Shown here: piece after piece, positions 1,771 to 33,031 of the stretch
Layout of the letters: every line of letters starts with the position of its first letter
Numbering within the stretch: position 1 is the first letter of the stretch
NCBI GenBank assembly: GCA_029879765.1
Contig: JAOUPQ010000004.1
Span: 1 to 35,069 of the forward strand
Reading direction: 5' to 3'
DNA: 35,069 nucleotides
Source of the DNA: Nitrospinota bacterium
Lineage (GTDB): Bacteria; Nitrospinota_A; UBA7883
The notes under the pieces: generated by a model
Database searches by the model: none
What the model saw: the letters and a program-made list of their open reading frames with translations, nothing else
What the model was told of the DNA's origin: nothing
Program-made: the position numbers and the translations under genes

Positions 1771-2340
1771 TCACCCCGGCATGCGGCCCACCGCTTCGGC
1801 GGTCACCACATAGCGCATCGGCCCTCCGGGGGTCACCGCGTCGAATGGCCAGCAGGTCACCAGCGCCAGAAGAGGCTCCCCTCCGTCATCCACGATCGTG
1901 GCGGTTCGGGAGTCCGCCACCTCCAGGGAGACGATGCGATATACGATCACCTCCCTGGCGGGGGTGTGGGCCAGAAGCACATCCCCTTTTTTAAGCTGAC
2001 GCAGGAAACTGAAATGAGTGTCCCTGTGTCCGCTGAAAACCGCCACACCAGGCGCCCCCGGCATGGCGGACCCGGGCGCGTGGCCCGGGCCGAATGCCAA
2101 TGTCCTGCCGCTGTCCCCCTCCAGCGCCACCATTCTCGTTCCCAGTCTGGGCGCCTCCAGCAGCGCCACTGGCCGGGTATCCGCCCAAGGCCACGGTTTG
2201 GGGGCTTCTTTCGCTTCCGTCGACTGGCGCCAGGCTCTTTCGATCAGCGCCTGGGCCAGGGCGGCCTTGGCGTGAATGTAACCTCCACTCAGCGCCAGGG
2301 CCACACCAGCGGCCGCTGTCATCATGGCAATCCATCTCAT
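1771..2340 (-). CDS. Class GN-type (proteobacterial dedicated) sortase
   Basis: Start at internal Met MRWIAMM, overlapping the stop of the upstream gene; FSGHRDTHFSFL (His), LALVTCWPFD (TLxTC-like Cys) and MRYVV (Arg) sortase signature. Confidence 0.88.
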   Translation of the reverse strand: MRWIAMMTAAAGVALALSGGYIHAKAALAQALIERAWRQSTEAKEAPKPWPWADTRPVALLEAPRLGTRMVALEGDSGRTLAFGPGHAPGSAMPGAPGVAVFSGHRDTHFSFLRQLKKGDVLLAHTPAREVIVYRIVSLEVADSRTATIVDDGGEPLLALVTCWPFDAVTPGGPMRYVVTAEAVGRMPG

Positions 2341-4397: not shown

Positions 4398-4514
4398 TTG
4401 TTAAATATATGCCGTCCCGAGGCGGTAGGGGGTGTAGGCGGGAGCTCCGATCGGCCTGGAAGGTAAATCTGCCCATCGAGCCTGTCGCGCCCCGGGACGG
4501 CTGTTGAATTGCGC

Positions 4515-4700
4515 TCAGCGCTCATCGGTTTCCCTGGCGCCTTCGCGTTTTGTTTTTGGCCGACAGCGGCAAAGACATGTGCCATGGAGCCTTGCGGGTT
4601 CCATGTTGGCGTTGGTGCATCCATGGATCCCCTCCGCGCTACGGATCTCATGGTTCTCCATCCGGGCCTCATCCATTTCTTTCATCTGCGCCTTTACCAT
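4515..4700 (-). CDS. Candidate 61-aa Cys-containing small ORF in the divergent intergenic region
   Basis: MVKAQMKEMDEARMENHEIRSAEGIHGCTNANMEPARLHGTCLCRCRPKTKREGARETDER; AAGGA lies about 6 nt upstream of the ATG. No family recognised. Confidence 0.2.
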   Translation of the reverse strand: MVKAQMKEMDEARMENHEIRSAEGIHGCTNANMEPARLHGTCLCRCRPKTKREGARETDER

Positions 4701-4874
4701 CGGTTTTCCTTTCCCTGTTTTCACCCTGAGGCTATTAAACCAATACCGAATGGAGAGCCCGTGACGGCAAAATGGAGAACAGCGGTGGAGATAATGGAAA
4801 ACCGGTGGAGACACAAAATTGAGGGCTGGCCAGGAGCCATTCGGCGTTATACTTTCCCCAAGGAGGCGCCAAAT

Positions 4875-5573
4875 ATGCCGAAAATCATAGGGATAGTGGA
4901 AGACGATACGGACCAACTGGAAAACTACGCCGACGCCATGCGCCGGAAAGGGTATGAGCCGGTGGGGTATACCCGGGCGGACCAGGCGCTGGAGGCCTTC
5001 ACCAAAAATCCGCCGGACCTGGCGGTCCTGGATATTTCTCTGGGCGCCGAGGTGGATGGAGGATTCGAATTGTGCCGAAGCCTGCTGGCGGCGCATCCCG
5101 GCCTGCCGGTGATTTTCCTCACCGACAGGGTGGATGAGATAGACAAGATATCCGGCTTGCGCCTGGGGGCGTGGGATTATGAAACCAAACCCATATCCTT
5201 AAACTTTTTGGCGGAAAAGGTGGCGGCGATCTTCCGGATCATGGAAAGCCGCAGCCAACCCCATGGAAAAGCGGAAGGGATCATCAAAACCGGGGATCTT
5301 GCTCTGGATGAAAACCGGATGACCGTGACATGGAAAGGGGCGCCGCTGGACCTGACCCTGACCGAGTTTCGCATCGTGGCGGCGCTTTGCCGCAGGCCAG
5401 GGGATGTGAAAAGCTACGAGTCGCTGATGGATTCGGCAATCCAGACAGTGGTGGCCCATAACACCGTCAACACCCATATCAGGCATATCCGCAAGAAGTT
5501 CGCCGCCTTGGATCCCGGCTTTGACAAGATACAAAATGAATACGCCCTGGGGTATCGCTGGGCGGAGGATTGA
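4875..5573 (+). CDS. Dedicated sortase system response regulator (receiver + winged-helix, OmpR/PhoB-like)
   Basis: ATG at 4875 preceded by AGGAGGCG; receiver motifs EDD, LDIS, K (ETKPIS) and a C-terminal wHTH; adjacent to a histidine kinase and divergent from the sortase operon. Confidence 0.85.
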   Translation: MPKIIGIVEDDTDQLENYADAMRRKGYEPVGYTRADQALEAFTKNPPDLAVLDISLGAEVDGGFELCRSLLAAHPGLPVIFLTDRVDEIDKISGLRLGAWDYETKPISLNFLAEKVAAIFRIMESRSQPHGKAEGIIKTGDLALDENRMTVTWKGAPLDLTLTEFRIVAALCRRPGDVKSYESLMDSAIQTVVAHNTVNTHIRHIRKKFAALDPGFDKIQNEYALGYRWAED

Positions 5574-7642
5574 CAGATGAAGAGCGCTGGTCCTCCAATT
5601 CCTTCCTTGCCGGGGCTATATCCATGAGGTTGGGTATAAGGGCAAGGCTCATTCTGCTGACCCTGGCGTTTCTTGTCATTCCGGTGCTGGCGTATATCTC
5701 GTCCCAGGAGATGAAGCGTTTCATGCTGCGCCACCAGCAATCCTCCCAGCTGATCGCCGCCCAGGCCCTGGCCGCCTCCTTGCATGGCCAATATGCCCAG
5801 TTCCAAATGCGCCAGGAGAAGAGCGGAGAGCTGACAGACGCGGCGATGTTCATCCATCGCGCCACGAGCCCATTCCGGATGGATGGCCTGGCGGACGAGT
5901 GGGCGCCCGCCGCCAGCGCTGTCCGCGAATTCGGCAGGGAGAGCCTGCTGATGGAATCGGGGGGTGGATTCGACCCTGCGACGGGGGGATTCAAGCTGAT
6001 AGTGGCAAGATGGGAGGATCACATCTATCTGCTGGTGTCCGTGCAAGATGAAACCGTAATCCCGATAAGTCGGGGCTGGACTGATCCAGGGAAAGCGGAT
6101 CATCTGCGGTTGGGGCTGGGCGCGCCGGGGGAAGGGGAGAGGAAATATATCGTCCCGGTATCATCCGATGGGGAGCTTTCCTTCCTGGAGGAGGCGCCAG
6201 GCGGCGGAAGGGTGGAAAGAAATGAGACTTTGGCCGGGCGAGTGAAAATAAATTCGCGCGGATATGTGATGGAGATCGCCCTGCCGGAAAGCCAGATCGC
6301 CGGCTCCATGACGCTTCGGATAATAGCGGAGGATGTGGACGACCAGAGGCGGGGCAGGGTGAAGTCGGCGATCGGGCCCATGGAAGATGGCGCCCCTGGC
6401 CTTATTCACCTGGCATACTTTCAGTCGCCCGAAATCCAGGGCATGCTAGATAGTCTGGATTTGGCGGAGGTGGAAGCCAGGGTGTTCGACAGGGCAAGGC
6501 GTTTGCGCGCCTCCACCGGGTTTGCGGCGGATGTATCGGGCGAGGGTGAGGCGCTCCGTATCCTGGCAAGTGGCGCTCCCTATTATACGAATATAGAAAC
6601 AGGCCCGAATGGGGAGAAAGTGGTGGCTGCGGCGCCGATAAAAGGCTCCGATGGTGGATCGCTGGGCGTCGTGATCCTGGAGCGCTCCACACGGGGGGCG
6701 GATTCGATGCAGGACAAGGCGATGGAGAACACCCTTTGGGGCGCCTTTCTGGCCTTTGTGGCCGTGGCCGCCGGGCTGGTGATATTTTCCACACGTCTCT
6801 CCTGGCGCATCCACAGGCTTCGCGGCGAGGCCGAGCGGGCCATAGACCAGGAGGGTCGCGTGCGGGTGGATGGGCTGGAAGCCAGCCGCGAATCGGGGGA
6901 TGAGATCGGCGACCTGTCCAGATCCATATCCGGATTGCTGAAAAAATTGCGCAGCCATCATGATTTTCTGGCGATCCTGCCCAGGACCCTGAAGCACGAG
7001 ATCAACAATCCCTTGAACACCATCACCGTTTCCCTGGAGAATCTGGCGGCGCAGGAGATGGGGCAAGCCGGGAGCAAGTATATCCAAAGCGCCGGGCGTG
7101 GAGTGGCGAGGCTGCGGGAAATAGTGGACAACCTGGCGGAGGCGGCCAGTGTCGAGGATTCGATCCAGGAGGAGAAGTTCGAGCCGGTGGATCTGGCGCT
7201 CATATTGGAGAGGTATATGGAGAACAGCGCTGGAGTTTACAAAGATCGCCGGATACAGTTCTCCAACCGGGCAGGGAAGGCGGCTATTCTTGGCTCTGAT
7301 TACCGGATCGAGCAGCTGCTGGACAAGCTGATGGACAACGCGCTGGATTTCACTTTCCGGGATGGAACCATCGAGGCGCGGCTGGAGCGAATGAATGGCA
7401 GGTTCCTGCTGACCTTTTACAATGACGGTCCTCCGATCCCGGAGAGGACTTTGGGTAATATGTTTGATTCCCTGGTGGCGGACAGGGAAGGGGATAAAAG
7501 CGCCCGGACGCATTTGGGGATCGGGCTTTATGTGGCGCGGGCGATCTGTCAGGGGCATGGGGGGGGCATCTCGGCAAGGAACACATCGGATGGAAAGGGG
7601 GTGGAGTTTCTGGTGATTCTGCCCGCGGCGAGGCACGGATGA
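5570..7642 (+). CDS. Dedicated sortase system histidine kinase (start may be 5624)
   Basis: TM segments, HAMP-like linker, H-box LKHEINNPLNTI, N-box DNALDF, G-box GIGLYVARAICQGHGG; overlaps the response regulator stop. Confidence 0.88.
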   Translation: MTDEERWSSNSFLAGAISMRLGIRARLILLTLAFLVIPVLAYISSQEMKRFMLRHQQSSQLIAAQALAASLHGQYAQFQMRQEKSGELTDAAMFIHRATSPFRMDGLADEWAPAASAVREFGRESLLMESGGGFDPATGGFKLIVARWEDHIYLLVSVQDETVIPISRGWTDPGKADHLRLGLGAPGEGERKYIVPVSSDGELSFLEEAPGGGRVERNETLAGRVKINSRGYVMEIALPESQIAGSMTLRIIAEDVDDQRRGRVKSAIGPMEDGAPGLIHLAYFQSPEIQGMLDSLDLAEVEARVFDRARRLRASTGFAADVSGEGEALRILASGAPYYTNIETGPNGEKVVAAAPIKGSDGGSLGVVILERSTRGADSMQDKAMENTLWGAFLAFVAVAAGLVIFSTRLSWRIHRLRGEAERAIDQEGRVRVDGLEASRESGDEIGDLSRSISGLLKKLRSHHDFLAILPRTLKHEINNPLNTITVSLENLAAQEMGQAGSKYIQSAGRGVARLREIVDNLAEAASVEDSIQEEKFEPVDLALILERYMENSAGVYKDRRIQFSNRAGKAAILGSDYRIEQLLDKLMDNALDFTFRDGTIEARLERMNGRFLLTFYNDGPPIPERTLGNMFDSLVADREGDKSARTHLGIGLYVARAICQGHGGGISARNTSDGKGVEFLVILPAARHG

Positions 7643-19487: not shown

Positions 19488-22262
19488 TCAGCCGGAAAGA
19501 GCCGCCTTTATTATAAGGATGATCAGCAGGATCCCGGTTCCCAGGAACAGCGCGCCCGCAGCATAGGCCAACGCCCGCCATTTTGGAGGCCAAGGCGTAT
19601 CGGTCAGCACCTCCTCCAGCCTGCCGGATTCCTTCAGCGCGGCGTATTCCATGCTCCGTTCTTCCATATACTTCTCCTCCGGTGTGAGCCCGGTGAAGAT
19701 CACCGGATCCATGGGGAAGGAGTCCGGCCGCAGGTGGGTATTGAAGAAGTGGATGGTGAATATGAACCCCACCGCCAGCAACGCCTCGTCACTGTGGATG
19801 ACCATCGCCAGATTGATGATCCATCCCGGAAGCCACTGGGTGAAGAAGAACGGGAACCACAGCACCAGCCCGGAAATGCCGATGATGGGCACGCCCCAGA
19901 ATACCGCAAAGTAGTCGAATTTCTCCCAATAGGTGAACCGGCCATAGTCTGGACGAGGCCCCAGCCATGTGAACCATTTTACAGTCCTCCAGAACTGGCG
20001 GATGTCGTTCAGGTTGAACATCATGGAGTCCGGCCCGAATGTGAACCCAAGCCAGGAAAGCCCGCTTTTGCGTTTGAGCTGGACCAGCGCCCGGATGTGG
20101 TAAATGAAGTAACCGAAGGTGATGATCGCCGCCACCCGGTGGATGAATCCGGCCGCCGCCACTCCACCCAGCATCCAGGCCACAGTCTGGGCCCATGGCT
20201 GGTAGGAGTATTTGAGCGCCATGCCGGTGAGCGCCAACGAAAGGAAACTGATAATCACCAGAATGTGGGTGATTCGGTGTCGCAGCTCGAACCGGCGGAT
20301 GTATCGCCCGGTGGGGGTGGGGCCGACCTTGCGGGAGAAGAGGGCATGGGTCAGCGACCGTGGCAGCCACAAAAGGGTGTGTACACCAAAGAAGCCGAAT
20401 ACCCCAAAAAGCAGCAGGGTCATGAACCAGTATGTGTAATAAATGAATGGCCGATCCTCCATGGAGTGATAATCGGCATGGGGGATGAACCCAGTGAAGT
20501 TCCTGGAGATCTGTTTATGGCACTTGCCACAGGTGCTGGCCAGGTTCTCCTTGGCCACCGAGGAGCGCGGATCGGAAGCGGGGAGGATGATATGGGCCAT
20601 GTGGCAGTCGGAGCATTTGGCGGCCTTATCGTATCCCAGCTTGTGGATCTTGCCATGGATGGTTTCCTGGTATGTCTGCGCCAGTTTTTGGTGGCACCCG
20701 CCGCACTGATAATTTATCTCCTGGCTGAACTTGTGGCCTGTGACCTTGGAAATGGTATGGGCGGAATGACAATCGGCGCAAGTGGGCAGTTTAGCCCCCT
20801 TCTTCCCGTCGTCGGCGAAATGGGCGCTGTGGGAGTAGTCGGTGTATATATCCTTATGGCATCCGCCGCAGGTGGTGGGGATATTGTCCTTATATACTGT
20901 GGATGCAGGGTCGGAGCTTTTCCGCATTCCATGGGAACTGTGGCAATCGGTGCAGACCGCAGGGGCCATATGCCCCTTGGCCAGCACCTCTTTCCCGTGG
21001 ACACTGGTGGAATAATCCGCCACCGCCTTGGCCCCCATGGTGGATATGGAGGCTGGAGGAGCGGGGCCTCCATGACACCTGCCACAGAGGGAAGGGATGG
21101 CGGATTTGAATGTAGGGGATGTTTCATCCAGATGGAGCTGGATATCGTGGGCGCCATGGCACGTGGAGCAATGGGGTGCGTCCCTGGTTCCCGCTTCCAG
21201 CGCCTGCCCATGGACGCTTTGGGCATACTGGGCGCCGAATGCGCTGTGGCAATGGGCGCAATCCACCCTGTGGGCTTTGGCGCAGGGACGGTCCTCCAGT
21301 TTAGGGTCCACATCCGAATGGCAGCTTGCGCAGGCGATGGCCTTGTGGACGGAGTTCTTTATCTTTTCCTGGGGAACATGGGGTGCGGTTCCCTCCCCGT
21401 CGTGGCATTGGGCGCAAAGCGTATCGGCCACTCCCTCCGGCGCGGGAGCCTCCCTTTGGGCTGAGTGTGGCTTGTGGCAGGTGACGCAGGAGGGGAGCGC
21501 CCACGGCTTCTCCTTCCACAAGGCCACCTGAAGAGTATTCTCGTGCATAGGGCCGATTTTCAGATGGCATGAGGAGCAGGTGTCCATTATATGTCTGCGG
21601 GAGACAGCTGAATCCGGCTCTGTGCTCTTTAGCTGTCTGTGGGCGCCGTGGCAATCCACACAGGTGGCCGCCACCGCCAACCCTTTTTCGAAAAAGCTCT
21701 TCCCGTGGATCTTTTCCGGGAAATTATCGGCGACGTTCAGTTCTGTGACATCGTTCCCCCGCCGGATCGGGGCGCCCTCGCTGTGGCATTTGCCGCACAG
21801 GAAGGGGCTATTGGCCCGGTTCACCATGGAGTTCGGGGCGTTTGCCTTTTTGATTGCGTGGTCACCATGGCACTGTCGGCAGGTGGGCGCATCCGGGGCG
21901 CCCATGGCCTGGGCCTTTCCATGAGCGCCTTTCTTATACTCAAAGTTTTCACTTTTGTGGCATCCCCCGCAGGATACCTTGTCAAAGGGATATTTGTGCA
22001 ACGGTTTGGAGATATCGATCTCCATGTCCAGATCCAGCTCGACGGTAAGCTTCGCGTCGGGATGGCATTCCAGGCATTTAAGCCCTGCGTGAGGCGATTC
22101 CTTTAAAGCGTCCTCGTCCACATAGATGGATCGCGGGGCGCCTGTTTGGGAGATGATCTCTTTTTTGGTCTCGTGGCACTCCAGGCAGTCTTCCTGCCCG
22201 AAGGAAGGGGAGGGGAGGAGCATGGAAAGGAGGGCGGCAATCGCCAAGATCCTGGCTTTCAT
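19488..22262 (-). CDS. 19-CxxCH multiheme cytochrome c fused to a C-terminal b561/HydC-type diheme membrane domain (CbcL-like architecture)
   Basis: I counted 19 CxxCH motifs in the periplasmic part plus one degenerate CAKAH; C-terminal TM helices with conserved His (ELRHRITH, GFIHRVA, FIYHIRA, MVIHSDEALL, TIHFFNTHLRP). Signal peptide present. Confidence 0.88.
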   Translation of the reverse strand: MKARILAIAALLSMLLPSPSFGQEDCLECHETKKEIISQTGAPRSIYVDEDALKESPHAGLKCLECHPDAKLTVELDLDMEIDISKPLHKYPFDKVSCGGCHKSENFEYKKGAHGKAQAMGAPDAPTCRQCHGDHAIKKANAPNSMVNRANSPFLCGKCHSEGAPIRRGNDVTELNVADNFPEKIHGKSFFEKGLAVAATCVDCHGAHRQLKSTEPDSAVSRRHIMDTCSSCHLKIGPMHENTLQVALWKEKPWALPSCVTCHKPHSAQREAPAPEGVADTLCAQCHDGEGTAPHVPQEKIKNSVHKAIACASCHSDVDPKLEDRPCAKAHRVDCAHCHSAFGAQYAQSVHGQALEAGTRDAPHCSTCHGAHDIQLHLDETSPTFKSAIPSLCGRCHGGPAPPASISTMGAKAVADYSTSVHGKEVLAKGHMAPAVCTDCHSSHGMRKSSDPASTVYKDNIPTTCGGCHKDIYTDYSHSAHFADDGKKGAKLPTCADCHSAHTISKVTGHKFSQEINYQCGGCHQKLAQTYQETIHGKIHKLGYDKAAKCSDCHMAHIILPASDPRSSVAKENLASTCGKCHKQISRNFTGFIPHADYHSMEDRPFIYYTYWFMTLLLFGVFGFFGVHTLLWLPRSLTHALFSRKVGPTPTGRYIRRFELRHRITHILVIISFLSLALTGMALKYSYQPWAQTVAWMLGGVAAAGFIHRVAAIITFGYFIYHIRALVQLKRKSGLSWLGFTFGPDSMMFNLNDIRQFWRTVKWFTWLGPRPDYGRFTYWEKFDYFAVFWGVPIIGISGLVLWFPFFFTQWLPGWIINLAMVIHSDEALLAVGFIFTIHFFNTHLRPDSFPMDPVIFTGLTPEEKYMEERSMEYAALKESGRLEEVLTDTPWPPKWRALAYAAGALFLGTGILLIILIIKAALSG

Positions 22263-22300
22263 CGCTCCTCCTTAATGCTCAGAAAAAATGTAAACCCCCG

Positions 22301-22341
22301 GGCGGGGAGGACGGGGATAAATCCCCTATCCTCCAGCCGCC
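22301..22341 (-). terminator. Long intercistronic hairpin between mtrB-like and 19-heme genes (terminator/attenuator/processing site)
   Basis: GGCGG.GGAGGA.GGGGA-TAAA-TCCCC..TCCTCC..CCGCC: 16 paired positions with small internal mismatches; on the minus strand a TTTTTT run follows about 12 nt downstream. Confidence 0.5.
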
Positions 22342-22361
22342 TGGCTCTCACTAAACCAAAG

Positions 22362-24629
22362 TCACTTCCCCAGCGACCATACGATAAACACCATGGCCTT
22401 ATTGGCCGTAAAGTCAGATTCCTGGGGAACCATGGTGATAACTTCCCGTATGGCGTCGGAAGCCGGCTCCACATCGTCCAGCGACCAGTTGTCCGCTGTA
22501 TACGTCTCCATGGCGTATCCCAACCCGAAGGTCAGGGCGTCGGAGAAGCGATACTTGGCTGTCACATCGATGGAAGTCAGCTTCGTTTTCAGATCCGGCA
22601 TGGCGGTGATATCTCCCACACCGCTGTTCCCGGTCAGAGTGATCGCAGTGGACGAGTCGGACACCGAGTAGTACGCCCCGATATCCAGCTTGTCGTCCAT
22701 CAGGACCACCATTGCCCCAAGCCCGATGGTGGGAGTCTTGTCCTCGTGAGTGGCCCACCAATCGTTATTGGGATCATCGAACATGGTGATCTTACTACCG
22801 CCGCCCCTGTAATACCTGGATGCCTGTTCCGCCGTCATGCTGTCCAAAGTATAGAAGGCGAACAGGGCCAGATGCTTGTCCGGGCGCACGGTCACGTCAG
22901 CCGTGACGCTGGATCCCTTGGAGCTGGTCAGCCCCATCTCCGATTCGCCATACTTGTCCTCGATGGCGGTATAAGAGAGGGTACCGCAGAATGTGGCCGA
23001 GGGCCACACCCCCACAGTTGCGCCGGTGGTGATCCTGTCTCTGGCCGCGATGTCATACTTTCGCATCAGGGGATGATCGTCAAAAGCGGTAACGGGATTC
23101 TGCCCATGGACGTATTCCGGAGTATGATACGCGTCATACACGGCAGCTTCCTCATAGTGCCCGTCGATCTTCCTGCTGGAGCTTGCGTAATTGACCCTCA
23201 GGTTGCCAACCCCGAAATTGTGGGTGATCCCGGCGTTGACCTTGTCCTCGATAGTCTTGGCCACTTCCCTATAGGAGCGCTCCACCGTCTGGTTGAGGTA
23301 TCCCACTTTCAGGATGGTGGCAGGGGCCAGGGTATATGCCAGATCCGCCTTCATATCGGTTTTGGAATGATCCACCGGCAGGTTGTTCAGCGCATGGCCT
23401 CCGTCTATCCCGTCCTGAGCCACTCCGGAATCGAGCGGGATATAGATGAAGGTATCCATGGGTGTTTTATTGTCGGTGGTGTAACTGCGAAACTCCAGGG
23501 CGACGTTCAGCTTGTCCACGGGTTTGGAGTTGGCCTTGATCGCATAGTTCATGACATCGATCTGGGCCTCCGCGCCGCTTCTGGGCAGCGGAGTCGCCAC
23601 CGTGGAATTGGCATTATACGAATAGTCGGCCAGATCGTTGTTCTGCTTGCTGGTGGCCGAATCCACATTCAGCGACAGAGACGTGTTCAGCGGCAGATCG
23701 TTCAACCCGCCAGCCAGGCCGAACCTCTGGTATGTGTTCGACGGAGGCAGGCTCGTCTTGCCCCGGGTGGGATAGTTCACTCCACTTACCGTGGTGGGAA
23801 ACGGGTTATCCCAGATCAGGTACTCGTTGGCGTTGTCGAAGGTGGACGCTTCGAAATCGAGCTTGGCGAAAGCGTTTTCACTTCTCCAGAACAGCGCGAT
23901 GGACATGTCGTTGGTGGTGTAATCCACCGGTCCTGGCAGGTCCACTGCCCTGTTGTTGCCGCCGGATGTACCCAGGGCGCCGATCACGGGCCTCGTGCCG
24001 TCCCTCTTGTCGCTGGAATAGCGCACTTCCACCATGAACATCCCCAGGGGGATTTCAAACTCGGCGGAGGTGGTCTTCCGGTCCACTCGCAGCTTGATGT
24101 CGCGGGCGGCGGAGCTGAGCTGATCCACCATATCCCCCGTATAGTTACCGGGAGTGAATCCGGCGGGCAGGGTCAGGTCCGCTGTGCCATCGCCTTCATA
24201 AATGGTTTTGGCGTCAGAGGATATCAGCCATGGGCTCTGGTCGAACTTCAAAGTTACCTCGTATCCGCCCAGAGACCCGAACTCCAACTTGATCGATCTG
24301 CTGTCGAGCCCCAGATCCTTGCCTTCCAGTTCAAGGTAGAAAAGATCCCTGTCGAATTCCAGCTCCAGTTCGCCGACAAGGAATGTTCCCTTGTCATCGA
24401 TTCCGTTGAATTTGCCATAGTGGGCGGAGACATGGTCAATATCCACATTCTGGGCGCCGAGGGTGATTTCACCTTCCAGTTCGCCTTCCGCCAGGGCGGC
24501 TTGTGGCCATGCCGCCAGGGTCAACGTGACAAGGAGCGCTGCGAACAGCCACAGGGGCGCTCCCACGATCATTCCGGCCCGCTCCGGGTTCTTCCTCCCG
24601 GCGCCTGGGCTAAAATATAAACTATTCAT
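22362..24629 (-). CDS. MtrB/PioB-family decaheme-associated outer-membrane beta-barrel
   Basis: Signal peptide; FGLAGGLNDLPLNTSLSLNVDSATSKQNNDL and alternating beta-strand pattern; directly downstream of an MtrA-like gene; start MNSLYFSPG with AAGGAGG upstream. Confidence 0.82.
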   Translation of the reverse strand: MNSLYFSPGAGRKNPERAGMIVGAPLWLFAALLVTLTLAAWPQAALAEGELEGEITLGAQNVDIDHVSAHYGKFNGIDDKGTFLVGELELEFDRDLFYLELEGKDLGLDSRSIKLEFGSLGGYEVTLKFDQSPWLISSDAKTIYEGDGTADLTLPAGFTPGNYTGDMVDQLSSAARDIKLRVDRKTTSAEFEIPLGMFMVEVRYSSDKRDGTRPVIGALGTSGGNNRAVDLPGPVDYTTNDMSIALFWRSENAFAKLDFEASTFDNANEYLIWDNPFPTTVSGVNYPTRGKTSLPPSNTYQRFGLAGGLNDLPLNTSLSLNVDSATSKQNNDLADYSYNANSTVATPLPRSGAEAQIDVMNYAIKANSKPVDKLNVALEFRSYTTDNKTPMDTFIYIPLDSGVAQDGIDGGHALNNLPVDHSKTDMKADLAYTLAPATILKVGYLNQTVERSYREVAKTIEDKVNAGITHNFGVGNLRVNYASSSRKIDGHYEEAAVYDAYHTPEYVHGQNPVTAFDDHPLMRKYDIAARDRITTGATVGVWPSATFCGTLSYTAIEDKYGESEMGLTSSKGSSVTADVTVRPDKHLALFAFYTLDSMTAEQASRYYRGGGSKITMFDDPNNDWWATHEDKTPTIGLGAMVVLMDDKLDIGAYYSVSDSSTAITLTGNSGVGDITAMPDLKTKLTSIDVTAKYRFSDALTFGLGYAMETYTADNWSLDDVEPASDAIREVITMVPQESDFTANKAMVFIVWSLGK

Positions 24630-24639
24630 GGTAGCCTCC

Positions 24640-25629
24640 TTATCTTGTAAATCTAGGTCCTGACGGATGGTTGGAGCCATGCACCTGCATATGGCAGTTC
24701 ACGCATCCCCTGTATATCTGCTGCTTCGCCGCTCCGGCGTTCACCGGCAGGCCCGAGCCGTTGTATAACGTGCTTGGGTGGTAGTTGGCGTTGTGGCAGG
24801 TTTGGCACAGGTATGGCTGTTTCATCTTCAACAGGCTTTCGTAGTTGGACCCATGAGGATTGTGGCAGTTGCCGCAATTTTCCCTCACCGGGGGATGCTC
24901 CCACAGCAACGGGCCGCGTTTTTCGGCGTGGCAGGAGTAGCAGTTCTCATTGACGGAAGCCTGGCGCAGGTTCGCAGGACCCTTTCCACCGTGGGGCTCA
25001 TGGCAATCCACGCAGGTCATTTTCCCTTCGCGCAGGGGCATGTGGGATGAGCGCATCATGGCCGAGCGCTTGTCCATATGGCAGTTGACGCAAACTTCGG
25101 TGGCCACATTGACTTGCTCAGGCAGGCGCCTAAGTTGCGGGGTCAGCTTCACCGGAGCAGCCGCCAGTTTGCGCTGGTGGCAGTCGATACAGCTAAGGTT
25201 GGCCGCCTCGTGGGAGCTTCCGGCCCAGTGGGTCATCCCTTTTGTTCCAAAATGGCAGTTGAGGCAGATGGCCCTGATTTCCCCCGGGGTGAGGGGCGAG
25301 TCTTTTGACAGGCCCACGATCAGGCTTTTGTCCACAGGGGCCGAGCCCGGCTCGCTTTTGGCCTTGGCGTCGGTCATGTGGCGGGTTCCATCACCATGGC
25401 AAGCCTGGCAACCCATAACCATGCTTTCACTCGATGGGTTTTTTGTAAAAACCTGGCCATGTTTTGTGGGGAGCCATTTGTCGATGTAGTCTTTGTGGCA
25501 TTTCCCGCAGGTCTTCACTGCGCTTTGCGCGTCTTCCGCTGTCACCGCTCCCCATGCCGTCGGCGGGACGGCAGCGGTGATGAACAACAAGACGGCCCCA
25601 TACAGGAAAGCTCTCCTCCATGGGTTCAT
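24640..25629 (-). CDS. MtrA/DmsE-like periplasmic decaheme c-type cytochrome
   Basis: Exactly 10 CxxCH motifs in 329 aa with signal peptide; GGTGCAGCAATG start context; paired with the MtrB-like barrel. Confidence 0.88.
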   Translation of the reverse strand: MNPWRRAFLYGAVLLFITAAVPPTAWGAVTAEDAQSAVKTCGKCHKDYIDKWLPTKHGQVFTKNPSSESMVMGCQACHGDGTRHMTDAKAKSEPGSAPVDKSLIVGLSKDSPLTPGEIRAICLNCHFGTKGMTHWAGSSHEAANLSCIDCHQRKLAAAPVKLTPQLRRLPEQVNVATEVCVNCHMDKRSAMMRSSHMPLREGKMTCVDCHEPHGGKGPANLRQASVNENCYSCHAEKRGPLLWEHPPVRENCGNCHNPHGSNYESLLKMKQPYLCQTCHNANYHPSTLYNGSGLPVNAGAAKQQIYRGCVNCHMQVHGSNHPSGPRFTR

Positions 25630-25973: not shown

Positions 25974-27209
25974 TCATGCCGTGACCACCCTTTCCCGGTT
26001 TTCCTCTGGCTCTTCAATATGTGTCTCGCCCGAATAGACCGGGAGGGTGAACTTGAGCAGCAGCGTATAGATCAGCGCTCCGGTCGCCCAGATGCCCACG
26101 CTCACCCCCAGCTCTATGCCGGAGGGCCAATACTCATAGATCTCCCCCAGGGTGGAAGGAGTGAAGCCTGGAATCACCAGTCCGAATCCCTTTTCGATAT
26201 ACACCCCCACGATTATCAGCACACATCCTATGTTCAGCAGCGCGATATTCCGCCGGGTGGCGGGAACAACGAAAATCACCAGCGCGGTGAGGTTCAGCGC
26301 CAGCGATGTCCACATAAGAGGGACCAGTCCATGGTGGCCATGCAGCCCGAAATACATATATTTCAGCGGCGCCAGGTGGACGCTGTTGGAGTAGAACTCC
26401 TTGAAGACCTCGCAGCCCAGCAGGAATATGTTGAGCGCCATGGTATAGGCGATCAGCTCGGCCACCTTCCGGATGGCCATGATGTCTATGTTTATGCGGG
26501 TGAATTTCCCCACGATCTGGAACACCAGGATGATGATGGCCGGCCCGGAGCAAAAGGCCGACGCCAGGAACCTGGGCGCCAGGATGCCGGCGTTCCAGAA
26601 TGGGCGGGCCGGAAGGCCGTTATACAGGAACGCCGTGACCGTGTGGATGCTCACCGCCCAGGGGATGGACAGGATGATCAGCGGCATGATGGGCGCATAG
26701 CTCTTTCCCTCGTAGATCTTGTAGAGCACATACAGGAAGATGATCGCGTTGATGAAAAGGTAACCGTTGAGCACCACCACGTCCCACACCAAAAGCGAGC
26801 TGGGAAAGTTCGGCGTGCCGATCAGCGGGGCCATGTGCAGTATCCTTTCCGGGCGGCCAAGGTCCGCCGTGACGAACATGATGCACATGCAGATGGCCGT
26901 GATGGCCATTATCTCCCCCAGAAAGACGATCTCCTTTATCGGGCCGAAATGGTATATATACGCAGGCACCACCAGCAGCACCGCCGCCGCCGCCACTCCC
27001 ACCAGGAAAGTGAAATTGGCGATGTAGAATCCCCAGGAGACTTCGTCTCGGATGGATGTGACGATGAACCCTTGGTTCCACTGGACACTATACGCGTATA
27101 GCCCAATTCCCATGACGGCCAGCAGGAAGAATATCCAGGCGTAGTACAGGGGGCTGCCATGGAAAATGTTCATCAGCGCCACCAGGAAGTTTCTTATCTT
27201 GTGAAACAT
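25974..27209 (-). CDS. NrfD/PsrC-family (HybB/DsrP-like) integral membrane quinone-interacting subunit, module A
   Basis: Multiple TM helices; GFYIANFTFLVGVAAAAVLLVVPAYIYHF, TADLGRPERILHMAP typical of HybB/DsrP-type NrfD proteins; downstream of the FeS gene. Confidence 0.88.
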   Translation of the reverse strand: MFHKIRNFLVALMNIFHGSPLYYAWIFFLLAVMGIGLYAYSVQWNQGFIVTSIRDEVSWGFYIANFTFLVGVAAAAVLLVVPAYIYHFGPIKEIVFLGEIMAITAICMCIMFVTADLGRPERILHMAPLIGTPNFPSSLLVWDVVVLNGYLFINAIIFLYVLYKIYEGKSYAPIMPLIILSIPWAVSIHTVTAFLYNGLPARPFWNAGILAPRFLASAFCSGPAIIILVFQIVGKFTRINIDIMAIRKVAELIAYTMALNIFLLGCEVFKEFYSNSVHLAPLKYMYFGLHGHHGLVPLMWTSLALNLTALVIFVVPATRRNIALLNIGCVLIIVGVYIEKGFGLVIPGFTPSTLGEIYEYWPSGIELGVSVGIWATGALIYTLLLKFTLPVYSGETHIEEPEENRERVVTA

Positions 27210-27220
27210 GACGCCCCCTC

Positions 27221-28126
27221 CTAGAAAAAGTAGTAGAACTTGGGTTGGGTGTTCAGGTCTTCCTTAAGCCGGAACACCCTCTTGTGCTCCAGCAGATATC
27301 GCATCTCGCTCTCCGGGTCCAGCAAATTGCCGAACTTGCGCGCCCCCACCGGGCAGATTTCCGCGCAGGCCGGATATTTTCCTTCCCGTGTCCTCTGGAT
27401 GCAGAATGTGCATTTCTCCACCACCCCCTTGGGCCTGGGGCGGTTGCCCAGGTAATGGGTGTTGGTGTTGATCTCATCCTTGGGGATGTCCGGTTCCGCC
27501 AGATTGAAGTGCCTGGCGCCATAGGGGCAGGCGGCCATGCAATATCGGCATCCTATGCACCAGTCGTAATCTACCACCACTATACCGTCCGGCTCTTTCC
27601 AGGTGGCCCCCGTGGGGCACACCTTGACGCAGGCCGACTGCTCGCACATCTGGCACCCGATGGGCATATAGAAGTATCCCTCTTCAGGCACCAGCGCCGG
27701 GTCGTAGTACCTTGTGGAGTTCTCCAGGTCGGCCCACTTGTCCCCCATCTTCGTGCGCATCACCGATATCCAGTGGATCTGCGGGTCGCGGCTTTGGTTG
27801 TTCTCCCCCACGCAGGCATAGACGCATCTGCGGCAGCCGATGCACCGGGACAGGTCCAGGCCATAGCCGAACAGGGTTCCCTCCATCGGAGCGGTGGCCT
27901 TCACCACAAATTCCCTGCCATATTTTGCCGAGTATTCTTTTTCCAGCTTGGCCAGGGTGGATTTTAGCTCCTCCTTGTCCATCTCCTTGAAGTGGCTTTG
28001 GAAGAAGCGATCCCAATTGATATTGTTCACACATCCCTGCGTGGCCAGCCCTGCCATCCCGGCGGTGGCCGCCTTCATGAACCCGCGCCGGTTCATCTGT
28101 TTTTTGTTGTCCGGCTTATTTTTCAT
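27221..28126 (-). CDS. Tat-exported ferredoxin-like FeS protein with four [4Fe-4S] motifs (HybA/DsrO-like), module A
   Basis: NRRGFMKAATAGMAG Tat signal; CIGCRRCVYAC, CQMCEQSACVKVC, CIGCRYCMAAC, CTFC...CAEICPVGAR (16 Cys). Confidence 0.9.
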   Translation of the reverse strand: MKNKPDNKKQMNRRGFMKAATAGMAGLATQGCVNNINWDRFFQSHFKEMDKEELKSTLAKLEKEYSAKYGREFVVKATAPMEGTLFGYGLDLSRCIGCRRCVYACVGENNQSRDPQIHWISVMRTKMGDKWADLENSTRYYDPALVPEEGYFYMPIGCQMCEQSACVKVCPTGATWKEPDGIVVVDYDWCIGCRYCMAACPYGARHFNLAEPDIPKDEINTNTHYLGNRPRPKGVVEKCTFCIQRTREGKYPACAEICPVGARKFGNLLDPESEMRYLLEHKRVFRLKEDLNTQPKFYYFF

Positions 28127-28793
28127 CTTTCTTCCTCAAAGCCAGCTTCGAAGGCGGGATGGGCGCCGGCTTGGGTTCGAGCTTCTGAAACTTGGGATTG
28201 TGCGGGTTGTGGCAGAGGATACACACCCAGTATTCCTTCTCTCCGTTCCAATATCCGGTGCGTTTGCCGTGGATGCCAAAAGACCAGTCGCGGAACTTGA
28301 TGCCATGGCACTGGCCGCAATACTTGAACGCCGCCTGGGGGACCAGATCTTTTTCCAGCTTATCCAGGGGGGTATTTATAACTTGGAAATTGGTGGTTTC
28401 CACATTCTTGGCCTCGCCCACGTTGGCCCCTTTCGGATTGCCCCCATGGCACTTTTCGCAGGTGACCTTGTTTTTGGAGTGTTTGCTCTTGTCCCAGTCC
28501 AGCACCAGCTTCTCATACTTCTCCTTTTCATAATGGCACCGAACGCACACCGACTCATGCTCGAAAAGGCGCAAAAGCAGGCCGAACTCGTCAACTATCT
28601 CCCCATCAGGGTTGACGAAGTATCCCGGGTGATCCTTGGAAGGGACAAGCTCCTCCTCGTCCTGGCCCCAAGCGGAGGGGAAGGAAAGGGCCAGCAGGCA
28701 AGCCAAGGCCGCGTACAAGGCGGACCTGGCCACCCGTGCGGGAATAGGGACCATCCCCCCATTCCCGGAAGATGCAACGCTATTGGACATCAT
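28116..28793 (-). CDS. Tetraheme c-type cytochrome, module A
   Basis: Signal-like N-terminus; CVRCH, CEKCH, CGQCH, CILCH; overlaps the FeS gene start by 11 nt. Confidence 0.85.
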   Translation of the reverse strand: MMSNSVASSGNGGMVPIPARVARSALYAALACLLALSFPSAWGQDEEELVPSKDHPGYFVNPDGEIVDEFGLLLRLFEHESVCVRCHYEKEKYEKLVLDWDKSKHSKNKVTCEKCHGGNPKGANVGEAKNVETTNFQVINTPLDKLEKDLVPQAAFKYCGQCHGIKFRDWSFGIHGKRTGYWNGEKEYWVCILCHNPHNPKFQKLEPKPAPIPPSKLALRKKDEK

Positions 28794-28835: not shown

Positions 28836-29453
28836 TCAGTGTTTGAACATCAGCTCGTATTTCTTATGCCAGGCCTTGTTCAGCTTTACCATCTCTTCGA
28901 AGTCGAACTTGTATTTTTCGTCCACCTTGGAGTTGAACGGCGAATCCGGGTGGTCATGGCACTCCAGGCACATCTCCTTGGTGGGGGGATATACCTCGCC
29001 CATCGCCGCCGCCTCGGCCTTGGTGAAGGTCTCGTCCTTTTCCTTGTGCAGGACGCGGTATTCGCTGCCTGCGCCATGGCACATCTCGCAACCCACCCCG
29101 CGCAGGTGCTCCGGGCTCTTCTCGTCCTTATATCCGCCGGGTTTGCCATAACCTATGGTGTGGCAGGGGAGGCACTTTGGATCCTTGTCATAGTCCTTCT
29201 TGTAATCCAGCCCCGCGTCCTTCATGGCCTTGTTGTCCCCCCGGCTCCTGCCGGCCGCCAAAAGTATGTTGAACGCGTTGGCGTGGGAGGATTTGGACCA
29301 TTCCTCGTATTCCGTCTTGTGGCAATTGCACCCCTCAACCCCCACATATTCAGGGGCTTTGGCCGCAACCGCATTATAGGTGGCCAACGTGGCCAGACAA
29401 AAAATGGAAACTCCAAGGAAAACCAAATATTTTCTCAACACCTTGCCCTCCAT
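28836..29453 (-). CDS. Cytochrome c554-like multiheme cytochrome, paralog 1 (3 CxxCH + 1 CxCH)
   Basis: YVGVEGCNCHKTEYEEWSKSSHANAF; CLPCHTIGYGKPGGY; GVGCEMCHGAGSEYR; EMCLECHD; C-terminal KYKFDFEEMVKLNKAWHKKYEL resembles the c554 fold. Confidence 0.82.
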   Translation of the reverse strand: MEGKVLRKYLVFLGVSIFCLATLATYNAVAAKAPEYVGVEGCNCHKTEYEEWSKSSHANAFNILLAAGRSRGDNKAMKDAGLDYKKDYDKDPKCLPCHTIGYGKPGGYKDEKSPEHLRGVGCEMCHGAGSEYRVLHKEKDETFTKAEAAAMGEVYPPTKEMCLECHDHPDSPFNSKVDEKYKFDFEEMVKLNKAWHKKYELMFKH

Positions 29454-29542
29454 AGTGTTCTGGTTTCGTCTCCCAAACGGATGAACAACGAAGCTCGTTA
29501 AAACATGTTATCCATAGCTGGCCCAATTCCCCCTAATATGCG

Positions 29543-29567
29543 AAAAGCCCACCGGTTCGGCGGGGGC
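29543..29567 (-). terminator. GC-rich hairpin plus TTTT between the two c554-like genes
   Basis: Minus strand GCCCCCGCCG-AAC-CGGTGGGC-TTTT; imperfect stem with a bulge. Confidence 0.4.
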
Positions 29568-29870
29568 CCGGAAATTCAAAAAGCTGATAACAGGCTGTAT
29601 ATATAAGCTATGGCTGAAAGATCGGAAGAAACGATTATAGATTGGAGCTATGAAGGAATAAGAAGAGGCGATGGCCGCCGCTTCTGTAGACAAGACTACT
29701 TCACTCCTGGTTGACATTACGACAATACCCCAACAGTCAATGACTGGAATGATACCAAAGTTCTGATAGACCTCAAATAGAAAAACGATTTTAAGGAATA
29801 CACCTCCGGAGTCGACTGGCGGCCCGGGGCGTCCATCCACCCCGGGCAGGCTTTTCTCCACGCCATGATA

Positions 29871-30470
29871 TCAGTGCTTGAAGAGCAACTCATACTTCTT
29901 GTGCCAGGATTTCTTCTCTTCCAGCCGGGCCTTGAAGTCGAATCCATATTTGGGGTCCGATTTGGAATTAAATACCGATTTTTCGTTGTCGTGGCACTTC
30001 CGGCACATCTCCTCGGTGGGGGGATATACCTCGCCCAAGGCGGCGGCTTCCTCTTTGGTGAAAGTCTCGTCCTTTTCCTTGTGCAGGACACGATACTTGC
30101 TTCCGGCGCCGTGGCACGATTCGCACCCCACCCCTTTCAGGTCCTCTTTAGTGTTCTGGAGCGAATAACCCCCAGGCTGGTTGAATCCGGTGGTGTGGCA
30201 CTCCAGGCATTTTTCATCCTGGTCATAGTCCTTTTTATAGTCCAGCCCCAGATCTTTCATGGCCTTGTTCTGTTTGCGCGACCTTTTTGAGGCGAATAGC
30301 TGGTCCAATGCCAAGCCATGCGTCGATTCGGACCAGTCTTTTAATTCCGTCTTGTGGCAGTTGCACCCTTCGTTTCCCACAAATTGCGGCGCTTCCGCCT
30401 GGGAGAATGTGGCCCAGGCCAGAACCATAACCAGCATTCCCAGCCATGTGAATGACAATTTGCCTAACAT
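29871..30470 (-). CDS. Cytochrome c554-like multiheme cytochrome, paralog 2 (3 CxxCH + 1 CxCH)
   Basis: FVGNEGCNCHKTELKDWSESTHGLAL; CLECHTTGFNQPGGY; GVGCESCHGAGSKYRVLHKEKDETFTK; EMCRKCHD; FDFKARLEEKKSWHKKYELLFKH. Confidence 0.82.
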   Translation of the reverse strand: MLGKLSFTWLGMLVMVLAWATFSQAEAPQFVGNEGCNCHKTELKDWSESTHGLALDQLFASKRSRKQNKAMKDLGLDYKKDYDQDEKCLECHTTGFNQPGGYSLQNTKEDLKGVGCESCHGAGSKYRVLHKEKDETFTKEEAAALGEVYPPTEEMCRKCHDNEKSVFNSKSDPKYGFDFKARLEEKKSWHKKYELLFKH

Positions 30471-30488: not shown

Positions 30489-31688
30489 TTATATGTTCTC
30501 TCCGGCTTGTGAGCCTGAAGAAGTTATCTGCTCCGGGGCTTCCTCCGTGGTTGGTCTTACGCTCAAAAACCTGGTTACTGCAAACAGCACCAAAAACGGG
30601 AGCAGCGTGAAGATGATGGCCATCAATATCCCTTCCTTTTCCAGCCATTGGGGATGGAATTCGCGAAATCCCACATAGCTTTTGGAAAACAGCTGGCCAC
30701 CCACGACGATGTTCCATCGCATCATCCACACCTCGAACAGCAGGTATACCGCCGCCACCGCCCCCATTTTCGCAAAGGAGGTCTCTTCCAGCTTCAGGGT
30801 GAACATGGCCGACAACAGGACGAAGGCCACGCCCAGGCCTATACCAAGCTGCAACACAAAGAAAGAATATTTGAGCTTGGTGAACAGAAGGGTGGATATG
30901 ACGAACCATGCGTCGGATGATTCGTAGTAGAAATAGAGCAGCTCCACCCCTTCCAGGACTATATACATGGCCGTGGAGAACCATAAAAGCGAACAGAGCA
31001 TGCGCAGACATATATATGATTTCTCCAGGTAGCCATACCACCCCAGGTACAGGTATAGCAACAAAACCAGGGCAAGACCGGATATTATCCCGGAGACAAA
31101 GAAGACAAAGGGCATGAGGGGAGTGGACCACCATGGGTTGGACTTTAACGATCCAAAAAGAAAACCGACATACCCGGACAGCACAGCCATGCTGGGGATT
31201 CCGATGGCTGTGAGAATGAACACCATCTGTCGGTCCACTTGTCTGGTGTCATCGTTTAGGTTCTGGTTCCACAACAGCAGTATGGTCAAAATTCTTTTCT
31301 TCAGTCCGCTGGCGGCTTCTGCGGCGCGGATCATATCTTCTCTGTATGCGAACCAGATGATCATGGCCAGTATCACCAGAAACAGCGAGTATATATATCC
31401 GAAACCGCCGATGGCGGAGCGGTGGTTGGGCACGATGACCACGTTCAAAGCTCTCTCCGGATGGCCCAGATGATTAAGAAGAGGCAGAGTGGCGCATAGG
31501 AGAAAAGAGAAAGACACCAGCAGGGAGAACCTGCTCACAGGCTTGAGGCTCTCTATGCCGAAAACGAAATACAAGGCCGAGATACCAAAGGCGCCTGCCA
31601 TGATTCCACTTATGTACGGATAGGTGACTATCATCAGCGACCATATGATATGTGAGTCGTTGGGGAATGAAAACTCGGTGTATATCAT
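30489..31688 (-). CDS. NrfD/PsrC-family integral membrane protein (CbcU-like), module B
   Basis: 399 aa polytopic protein; LLNHLGHPERALNVV, WWSTPLMPFVFFVSGIISGLALVLLLYLYLG; directly downstream of the FeS gene. Confidence 0.87.
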   Translation of the reverse strand: MIYTEFSFPNDSHIIWSLMIVTYPYISGIMAGAFGISALYFVFGIESLKPVSRFSLLVSFSFLLCATLPLLNHLGHPERALNVVIVPNHRSAIGGFGYIYSLFLVILAMIIWFAYREDMIRAAEAASGLKKRILTILLLWNQNLNDDTRQVDRQMVFILTAIGIPSMAVLSGYVGFLFGSLKSNPWWSTPLMPFVFFVSGIISGLALVLLLYLYLGWYGYLEKSYICLRMLCSLLWFSTAMYIVLEGVELLYFYYESSDAWFVISTLLFTKLKYSFFVLQLGIGLGVAFVLLSAMFTLKLEETSFAKMGAVAAVYLLFEVWMMRWNIVVGGQLFSKSYVGFREFHPQWLEKEGILMAIIFTLLPFLVLFAVTRFLSVRPTTEEAPEQITSSGSQAGENI

Positions 31689-31694
31689 GGTTTC

Positions 31695-32483
31695 CTACCT
31701 CACTGCCCTGTCCAGGCCGATATAGAAGCAGTATGGCTCCGTGTTCAGCTCCGGCTTGAGCACCATCACCCGCTGGTTGTCGATAATTTCCCGGACCTGT
31801 GAATTTTTCATCTTCAGGTCGCCGAATATCCTGGCCTTGGTGGGGCATACAGTCACGCAGGCCGGGGCCAGCCCCTTGGTGACCCTGTGGTAGCACCATG
31901 TGCATTTGTCCGCGGTGTGGGTTCTGGGGTCTATATACCTGGTGTCATAGGGGCAGGCCTGGACGCAATAACCGCATCCGATGCAGACCTTCTTGTCCAC
32001 CAGCACCACCCCCTGGGGGCTTTCATATGACGCGTTCACAGGGCACACCTGGGTGCATGGGGTATTGCGGCAGTGGTTGCAAAGCTTCGGGACGAAAAAT
32101 CCCTTTATAACGTTCCCTTCCACATCCTTGGGGGGGAAGCTGTTGATTCCCCCATCCGGTGAGTCTATATACACATGGCCGGTGTCGGTGATCTGGTATC
32201 GCTCCACCCAGGTTCTGCTATAACCGTCTGGCGTGTCGTTTTCCCTTTTGCAGGCCCGCGCGCAGGCGCCGCAACCGATGCACTTTGTGGTGTCCACCAC
32301 ATAGGCGTAATAGTGATCCATCCAGTCCGGCACATGCTTCATCTCCTCGATATTATGGATACGCTGGCCGCTGGATGATTTGGGGATCAGTGTGACGATA
32401 AGCATGCCCGCCATGCCGGAGGCCGCCATTTTCAAAAACTCCCTCCGGCTTCTGGATCGCTTGGGCGCCTTCCTCTTTTTCAT
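31695..32483 (-). CDS. Tat-exported four-cluster FeS protein (CbcT-like), module B
   Basis: MKKRKAPKRSRSRREFLKMAASGMAGMLIVTL Tat signal; CIGCGACARAC, CNHCRNTPCTQVC, CIGCGYCVQAC, CTWC...CVTVCPTKAR. Start overlaps the upstream cytochrome stop (ATGA-type). Confidence 0.9.
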   Translation of the reverse strand: MKKRKAPKRSRSRREFLKMAASGMAGMLIVTLIPKSSSGQRIHNIEEMKHVPDWMDHYYAYVVDTTKCIGCGACARACKRENDTPDGYSRTWVERYQITDTGHVYIDSPDGGINSFPPKDVEGNVIKGFFVPKLCNHCRNTPCTQVCPVNASYESPQGVVLVDKKVCIGCGYCVQACPYDTRYIDPRTHTADKCTWCYHRVTKGLAPACVTVCPTKARIFGDLKMKNSQVREIIDNQRVMVLKPELNTEPYCFYIGLDRAVR

Positions 32484-33031
32484 GCTACCCCCTTGGAAAA
32501 AGCTTTCGGAAAATGGGAGTTGTGGCATCTGCCACAGGGAGCTTTGGTGTCTACTTCGCCCATGGTCTTCTTCCAGCCATCCTTCTTGTGCTTGGCCTGA
32601 TCCTTGATCTGGGGAAACTTGGCCGGGCGGGATGGGAGGAATATGTGGCAGTTCAGGCATGGCTGCTCTGTCTTGTCTATGGGCATAAGTTCCAGCTTCA
32701 CATATTTGCCTCCATCAGCTTTGGCCTTGATGGCCGGGTCCGCCTTGTCGGTGGCGATCGCATGGGGCTTGGGGAGGAAGTGACAGCTCTCGCAGGGGAC
32801 ATTGGCGTGTTTTGCATCGGCCATATCCCATTCGGGTTCATGACAATCCAGGCAATAATCGTCCCCCTTGTGAATAGTGGCTAATGAGGAGGCTTCCAAA
32901 AGATGATCTCCCCGATATCTTCCATATTGACCAAAGGAATCCGGGGCCAGCAGGGCCTGGAACATCTGGAACCCCAGGAAGGCCAGCCCGACCAGGATGA
33001 AAACGTTCATCACATGAGAATATTTGCTCAT
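32480..33031 (-). CDS. Membrane-anchored tetraheme c-type cytochrome (CbcS-like), module B
   Basis: N-terminal TM (NVFILVGLAFLGFQMFQALL); CLDCH, CESCH, CLNCH, CGRCH. Confidence 0.85.
   Translation of the reverse strand: MSKYSHVMNVFILVGLAFLGFQMFQALLAPDSFGQYGRYRGDHLLEASSLATIHKGDDYCLDCHEPEWDMADAKHANVPCESCHFLPKPHAIATDKADPAIKAKADGGKYVKLELMPIDKTEQPCLNCHIFLPSRPAKFPQIKDQAKHKKDGWKKTMGEVDTKAPCGRCHNSHFPKAFSKGVA

What the first reader, a model, noticed from the sequence alone, without database searches (positions are those of the whole stretch)
29319..30365. Two c554-like cytochromes share a contracted CxCH (C-N-C-H) where the first CxxCH heme motif is expected
Seen directly: minus-strand codons TGC-AAT-TGC-CAC at 29319-29330 and TGC-AAC-TGC-CAC at 30354-30365 both give GCNCHK. 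The flanks (YVG.EGCNCHKTE..EW..S.HA.A) align with the first heme site of cytochrome c554 as I recall it (KKCSSCHKAQAQSW), one residue shorter. The copies differ synonymously (AAT/AAC) and in flanking residues, so one sequencing indel cannot explain both, and each reading frame continues intact into three normal CxxCH motifs. CxCH is not a standard c-type heme attachment motif: known natural variants I am aware of lengthen the spacer (CX3CH, CX4CH, CX15CH) or lose a Cys (AxxCH, FxxCH). This could be a natural CxCH heme site, a site needing special maturation, or a converted metal/disulfide/open-coordination site.
Basis: partly seen in the sequence, partly recalled or inferred. Interest (0 to 1): 0.85.

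Follow-up and report, generated by a model that had tools for sequence, protein, structure and literature searches.

The report
Conserved one-residue-shorter heme-attachment motif
Two neighbouring electron-carrier proteins in an uncultured Nitrospinota bacterium carry a heme-attachment site that is one amino acid too short (Cys-x-Cys-His), and this shortened site is perfectly conserved in their relatives, so it is probably a real heme site of a spacing for which I found no experimental report.

Summary
Two intact tetraheme-type genes on the minus strand (28836-29453 and 29871-30470; 63% identical) carry CNCH where cytochrome c554 has its first CXXCH, followed by three normal CXXCH motifs. Both belong to Pfam Cytochrome_C554, and the predicted fold (pLDDT 91) matches N. 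europaea c554 (TM 0.88). CxCH is no accident: it occurs in the two window proteins and all eight intact close homologs (seven Nitrospinota genomes) and in one Sedimenticola MAG, apparently a second origin nested among CXXCH relatives (AU p = 0.038). Exactly one residue is missing between the cysteines. All eleven CxCH proteins have Gly before the first Cys (1 of 70 other homologs does) and keep the seven histidines aligned with c554's heme ligands. Of 235 multiheme ORFs fetched, only this clade has CxCH. The near-complete relative G007 has a standard Ccm set, so no dedicated CytC_asm-type synthase is indicated. A crude geometric model finds two thioethers feasible for CXCH. Best reading: a genuine contracted heme-1 site in a periplasmic cytochrome serving NrfD/Fe-S modules and an MtrAB-type conduit. 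Whether heme is bound, and by one or two bonds, needs mass spectrometry. In the papers searched, CXCH appears only as a bioinformatic search pattern.

The parts
28836..29453 (-). c554-A, exported tetraheme-type cytochrome with CxCH at motif 1 (start could be TTG 29438)
29319..29330 (-). CNCH (C42-N43-C44-H45), contracted motif 1 of c554-A
29871..30470 (-). c554-B, paralog, 63% identical to c554-A, CxCH at motif 1
30354..30365 (-). CNCH, contracted motif 1 of c554-B
28116..28793 (-). 225-aa multiheme cytochrome with CXXCH motifs, module A
27221..28126 (-). 4Fe-4S ferredoxin-type subunit, module A
25974..27209 (-). NrfD-type membrane quinone subunit, module A
   Evidence: PF03916, E 3.7e-39
24640..25629 (-). 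DmsE-family decaheme cytochrome (MtrA-like)
   Evidence: TIGR03508, 235 bits, cut-off 192
22362..24680 (-). MtrB/PioB-family outer-membrane porin
   Evidence: PF11854, E 7.5e-103
19488..22262 (-). 924-aa multiheme cytochrome with a weak b561-like C-terminal match
30489..31688 (-). NrfD-type membrane subunit, module B
   Evidence: PF03916, E 7e-28
31695..32660 (-). 4Fe-4S subunit, module B
32480..33031 (-). 183-aa multiheme cytochrome, module B

Best explanation
The CxCH is a genuine, contracted heme-c attachment site (heme 1) in a c554-fold tetraheme cytochrome. One codon was deleted between the two cysteines in an ancestor of this Nitrospinota clade, and probably a second time in a Sedimenticola relative. 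Shown: the precise one-residue deletion, invariance of both Cys and the His, retention of all aligned ligand histidines, the c554 fold (predicted), genomic association with quinone-linked modules, and no extra synthase gene in the near-complete relative G007. Inferred: heme 1 is attached by the ordinary Ccm pathway (cysteine-type CcmE) through His45 ligation and thioether bonds to Cys44 and probably Cys42; Gly41 and a non-helical turn allow the shorter spacing; and the protein passes electrons in the periplasm between NrfD/Fe-S quinol modules and the MtrAB-type outer-membrane conduit.
For: All ten intact Nitrospinota members (two window proteins, eight homologs; seven genomes) plus L036 have C-x-C-H with Cys, Cys and His invariant and x = N, K or G; one disrupted copy has CRCH. 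The distances from G38 to C42 and from H45 to W52 equal those in CXXCH sisters. All seven His aligned with c554 ligands (45, 57, 98, 126, 136, 166, 196) are kept in 11/11 CxCH rows, although H136 is His in only 19/70 other homologs. Gly precedes C1 in 11/11 CxCH rows against 1/70 others (one of the 11 rows and the window protein are identical copies of c554-A, but c554-B and L036 also have Gly). The fold matches 1FT6, TMq 0.88, rmsd 2.1. Paralogs have CXXCH, CX3CH (CAGECH) or CX4CH (CAAADCH) at the same site. Every Nitrospinota genome searched has CytC_asm and CcmH proteins; near-complete G007 has three CytC_asm proteins and one CcmH. CcmE carries SCPSRY; an organism with this CcmE type matures CX3CH and CX4CH sites, shown by +615 Da heme peptides (PMC11024163; PMC9084895). 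A crude restraint model gives residual strain of about 0.1 for n=1, 0.25-0.45 for n=2-4, and 2.0-2.9 for n=0. Gene context.
Against: No direct evidence of heme at this site. A review reports that altered cysteine spacing made E. coli Ccm insert an extra sulfur, a sign that spacing matters (PMC3601427). The geometric model is crude: no protein context, no real energy scale, no vinyl stereochemistry. Structure prediction used no heme. Invariant Cys and His could also serve another kind of site.
Confidence: 0.7

Rival explanations
1. Single-thioether heme: only Cys44 (the Cys next to His45) is bonded to heme 1, as in AXXCH/FXXCH mitochondrial cytochromes, while Cys42 stays a free or redox-active thiol.
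For: C44-H45 keeps the normal Cys-His arrangement and the His ligands are retained.
Against: Cys42 is invariant in all eleven proteins and in a disrupted copy, unexpected if it were dispensable. From memory, E. coli Ccm does not attach heme to single-Cys variants. Geometry does not force this.
Confidence: 0.2
2. The site no longer binds heme: C42/C44 form a CxC disulfide or, with H45, a metal site, leaving a triheme cytochrome.
For: The spacing is not canonical and no experimental CXCH heme site turned up in the papers searched.
Against: All three histidines aligned with c554 distal ligands are retained, including whichever serves heme 1; the same site varies as CX3CH and CX4CH in paralogs; the fold is unchanged.
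Confidence: 0.15
3. A dedicated synthase or chaperone matures the CxCH site, as NrfEFG does for CXXCK and CcsA1 for CX15CH.
For: Precedent for non-canonical motifs (PMC3601427; PMC12285233).
Against: No additional CcmF/CcmC/CcsA-type or CcmH protein in near-complete CxCH-bearing G007; counts in CxCH-bearing and CxCH-lacking genomes are similar. A protein of another family is not excluded.
Confidence: 0.05
4. Assembly or sequencing artefact, or pseudogene drift.
For: MAG data; one related copy has an in-frame TAG.
Against: Two loci in one genome plus homologs in independent genomes, including G007 in 4 contigs; frames intact, cysteines invariant.
Confidence: 0.01

Closest known systems
Cytochrome c554 (CycA) of Nitrosomonas europaea, PDB 1BVB/1FT5/1FT6
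   Same: Fold, order of four heme motifs, seven aligned ligand histidines, size
   Different: CxCH instead of CXXCH at motif 1; about 32% identity; 124 of the 400 bits required by NCBIfam NF043010; context is NrfD/Fe-S and porin-cytochrome genes
CX3CH/CX4CH heme sites, e.g. MmcA of Methanosarcina acetivorans
   Same: Natural departure from two-residue spacing, matured in an organism with cysteine-type CcmE
   Different: Those lengthen the spacer; here it is shortened
Special-maturation motifs: NrfA CXXCK, MccA CX15CH
   Same: Non-canonical heme attachment motif in a related multiheme superfamily
   Different: Those use dedicated synthases; none was found here
CXCH as a search pattern in the FEET pipeline
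   Same: The same string is listed as a possible heme motif (PMC11218250)
   Different: A regular expression only; the passage offers no evidence of heme binding

Membership tests
Pfam Cytochrome_C554 (PF13435) | Score above the gathering cut-off | tested here: met
   78.4 and 71.9 bits, cut-off 20.8
Cytochrome c554 fold | Same three-dimensional fold | tested here: met
   Predicted model, pLDDT 91.3; Foldseek TMq 0.88, rmsd 2.1 to 1FT6
c554/CycA equivalog (NF043010) | At least 400 bits | tested here: not met
   124 and 113.5 bits
Canonical c-type heme site at motif 1 | CXXCH | tested here: not met
   CNCH in both proteins
c-type cytochrome site at motif 1 | Heme covalently attached to Cys | not testable with these tools
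   Needs mass spectrometry or a structure
c-type cytochrome site at motif 1 | Proximal and distal His kept | tested here: met
   Seven aligned His in 11/11 CxCH rows; which distal His serves heme 1 was not determined here
Ccm System I with cysteine-type CcmE | CXXXY in CcmE | tested here: met
   SCPSRY in G000 and G007
MtrAB-type conduit (neighbouring genes) | DmsE-family decaheme plus MtrB/PioB porin | tested here: met
   TIGR03508 235 bits (cut-off 192), TIGR03509 307 bits (cut-off 240)

The most novel reading that the evidence does not exclude
A natural heme-c site with only one residue between two thioether-bonded cysteines (CXCH), which arose at least twice, each time with Gly before the first Cys, and is matured by the ordinary Ccm machinery. 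This would extend the usable spacing downwards from two to one.
Probability: 0.45. Interest if true: 0.75.

Novelty: new variant of a known kind. Interest (0 to 1): 0.62.

Why it matters
Heme-c sites are counted by pattern; scripts that count CX2-4CH (e.g. PMC10734462) would call these proteins triheme. A conserved CxCH site would show that the attachment machinery tolerates a shorter loop as well as longer ones, and gives a compact test case for what CcmF/CcmH recognise and for persulfide or single-bond side products. It also points to quinone-linked and outer-membrane electron transfer in Nitrospinota outside the families of the phylum that lack this clade.

Tried and rejected
AlphaFold with the ten CxCH sequences alone failed (pLDDT 53); with 81 family members it succeeded. 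Chance occurrence of the DNA motif was considered and set aside because of the conservation. A duplicate of c554-A entered the first wide alignment and tree in place of c554-B; the second tree has both window proteins. A dedicated synthase was looked for and not found. Literature searches for CXCH gave one mention only, as a regular expression. Wider genome samples (392 relatives and 387 genomes of the class of G059) gave no further CxCH clade members at E <= 1e-45.

Full report
Observation. The two CNCH sites are present exactly as described. They lie in two intact minus-strand genes whose 205- and 199-aa products are 63% identical, begin with a signal-peptide-like segment (by eye) and carry three further normal CXXCH motifs. 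Both match Pfam Cytochrome_C554 well above its cut-off; c554-A aligns with the solved cytochrome c554 over nearly its whole length, CNCH lying on CSSCH. The DNA pattern itself is not rarer than chance, so the argument rests on homology.

Conservation. In the relatives first searched, every intact homolog above 49% identity has CxCH: CNCH or CKCH. Across the 24 Nitrospinota genomes held, the clade is found in seven: ten intact members, two of them the window genes, and one copy with an in-frame TAG that still reads CRCH. The named collection places these in Nitrospinota MAGs and adds one protein with CGCH in a Sedimenticola MAG (L036), beside ordinary bacterial genes. Distances outside the motif are unchanged against CXXCH sisters, so exactly one residue is missing between the cysteines. 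In 235 distinct multiheme ORFs from all fetched DNA the spacer is 2 in 1231 cases, 3 in 14, 1 in 11 and 4 in 8; all eleven cases of 1 are this site.

History. Trees built without the motif columns place the Nitrospinota CxCH proteins in one clade (100/99) and the Sedimenticola protein inside a gammaproteobacterial CXXCH clade. Holding all CxCH proteins together is rejected only marginally (AU p = 0.038), and the second origin rests on one MAG, whose other paralog has CGGCH. In paralogs the same site is CXXCH, CX3CH (CAGECH, also in the window's own genome) or CX4CH: motif 1 is a length-variable site. All CxCH proteins have Gly before the first Cys, against 1 of 70 other homologs.

Is it a heme site? 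In c554, as I know the family, four motif histidines and three distal histidines ligate the hemes and heme 2 is the open one; [quoted passage not shown] The seven aligned histidines are present in all CxCH proteins, including H136, which is His in only 19 of 70 other homologs. If heme 1 had been lost, its ligand would be expected to drift. The model made from 81 family sequences is confident (pLDDT 91.3) and matches c554 (TMq 0.88, rmsd 2.1). It contains no heme and cannot show occupancy.

Maturation. All 24 Nitrospinota genomes have CytC_asm proteins and CcmH. The near-complete G007, which has a CxCH gene, has three CytC_asm proteins (one CcmF-sized, one CcmC-sized, and a third that I take to be HemX-like by size) and one CcmH, so nothing resembling a dedicated NrfE- or CcsA1-type synthase. 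CcmE in the window's genome and in G007 carries SCPSRY, the cysteine type. An organism with that CcmE type attaches heme at CX3CH and CX4CH sites, shown by mass spectrometry (PMC11024163; PMC9084895). Against easy tolerance, a review states that altered spacing in the E. coli system yielded an extra sulfur between Cys and heme (PMC3601427). A crude restraint model of C-X(n)-C-H on a flat porphyrin found two thioethers plus Fe-His satisfiable for n=1 as well as for n=2-4, and clearly worse for n=0; it omits protein context and stereochemistry at the vinyl carbons and is only a feasibility check.

Context and role. In the window, c554-B closes a module of small multiheme cytochrome, 4Fe-4S protein and NrfD, and c554-A opens a second such module followed by a DmsE-family decaheme cytochrome, an MtrB/PioB porin and a large multiheme protein. 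In relatives the CxCH gene recurs next to decaheme-porin pairs, next to NrfD/Fe-S modules, or, in G007 and G011, after a 4Fe-4S gene and a TorD-like gene (the latter by eye), in G007 also a molybdopterin oxidoreductase. The likely role is a periplasmic electron carrier linking quinone-side modules to terminal or outer-membrane partners; this is inference from position.

Verdict. A real, conserved and apparently functional contraction. Heme occupancy with one or two thioethers is likely but unproven. In the papers searched, CXCH appears only as one regular expression of a search pipeline; subscription journals are largely outside that library, so novelty is provisional.

Noticed in passing
L131 1465-2037(+); L003 1471-2088(-): Paralogs of the same family in Nitrospinota have CX4CH (CAAADCH) or CX3CH (CAGECH) at motif 1, so one homologous site shows spacers of 1, 2, 3 and 4 residues.
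   Followed up: partly
L135, L144, L145, L152, L039: A separate group of C554-type proteins has CX3CH at motif 4 (e.g. CTTACH, CATQCH).
   Followed up: no
L129 (G004:C49:4442-5017): A CxCH family copy (CRCH) with one in-frame TAG, probably a pseudogene.
   Followed up: partly
window 19488-25629: MtrAB-type decaheme/porin conduit with a 924-aa multiheme, b561-like protein in a Nitrospinota genome.
   Followed up: partly
window 29438-29453: The start of c554-A may be TTG 29438 (after GGAGGG) rather than ATG 29453.
   Followed up: no
window 1771-7642: A sortase-like protein, a VWA/vault-type protein, a response regulator and a histidine kinase in a row, resembling a dedicated sortase system (by eye only).
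   Followed up: no
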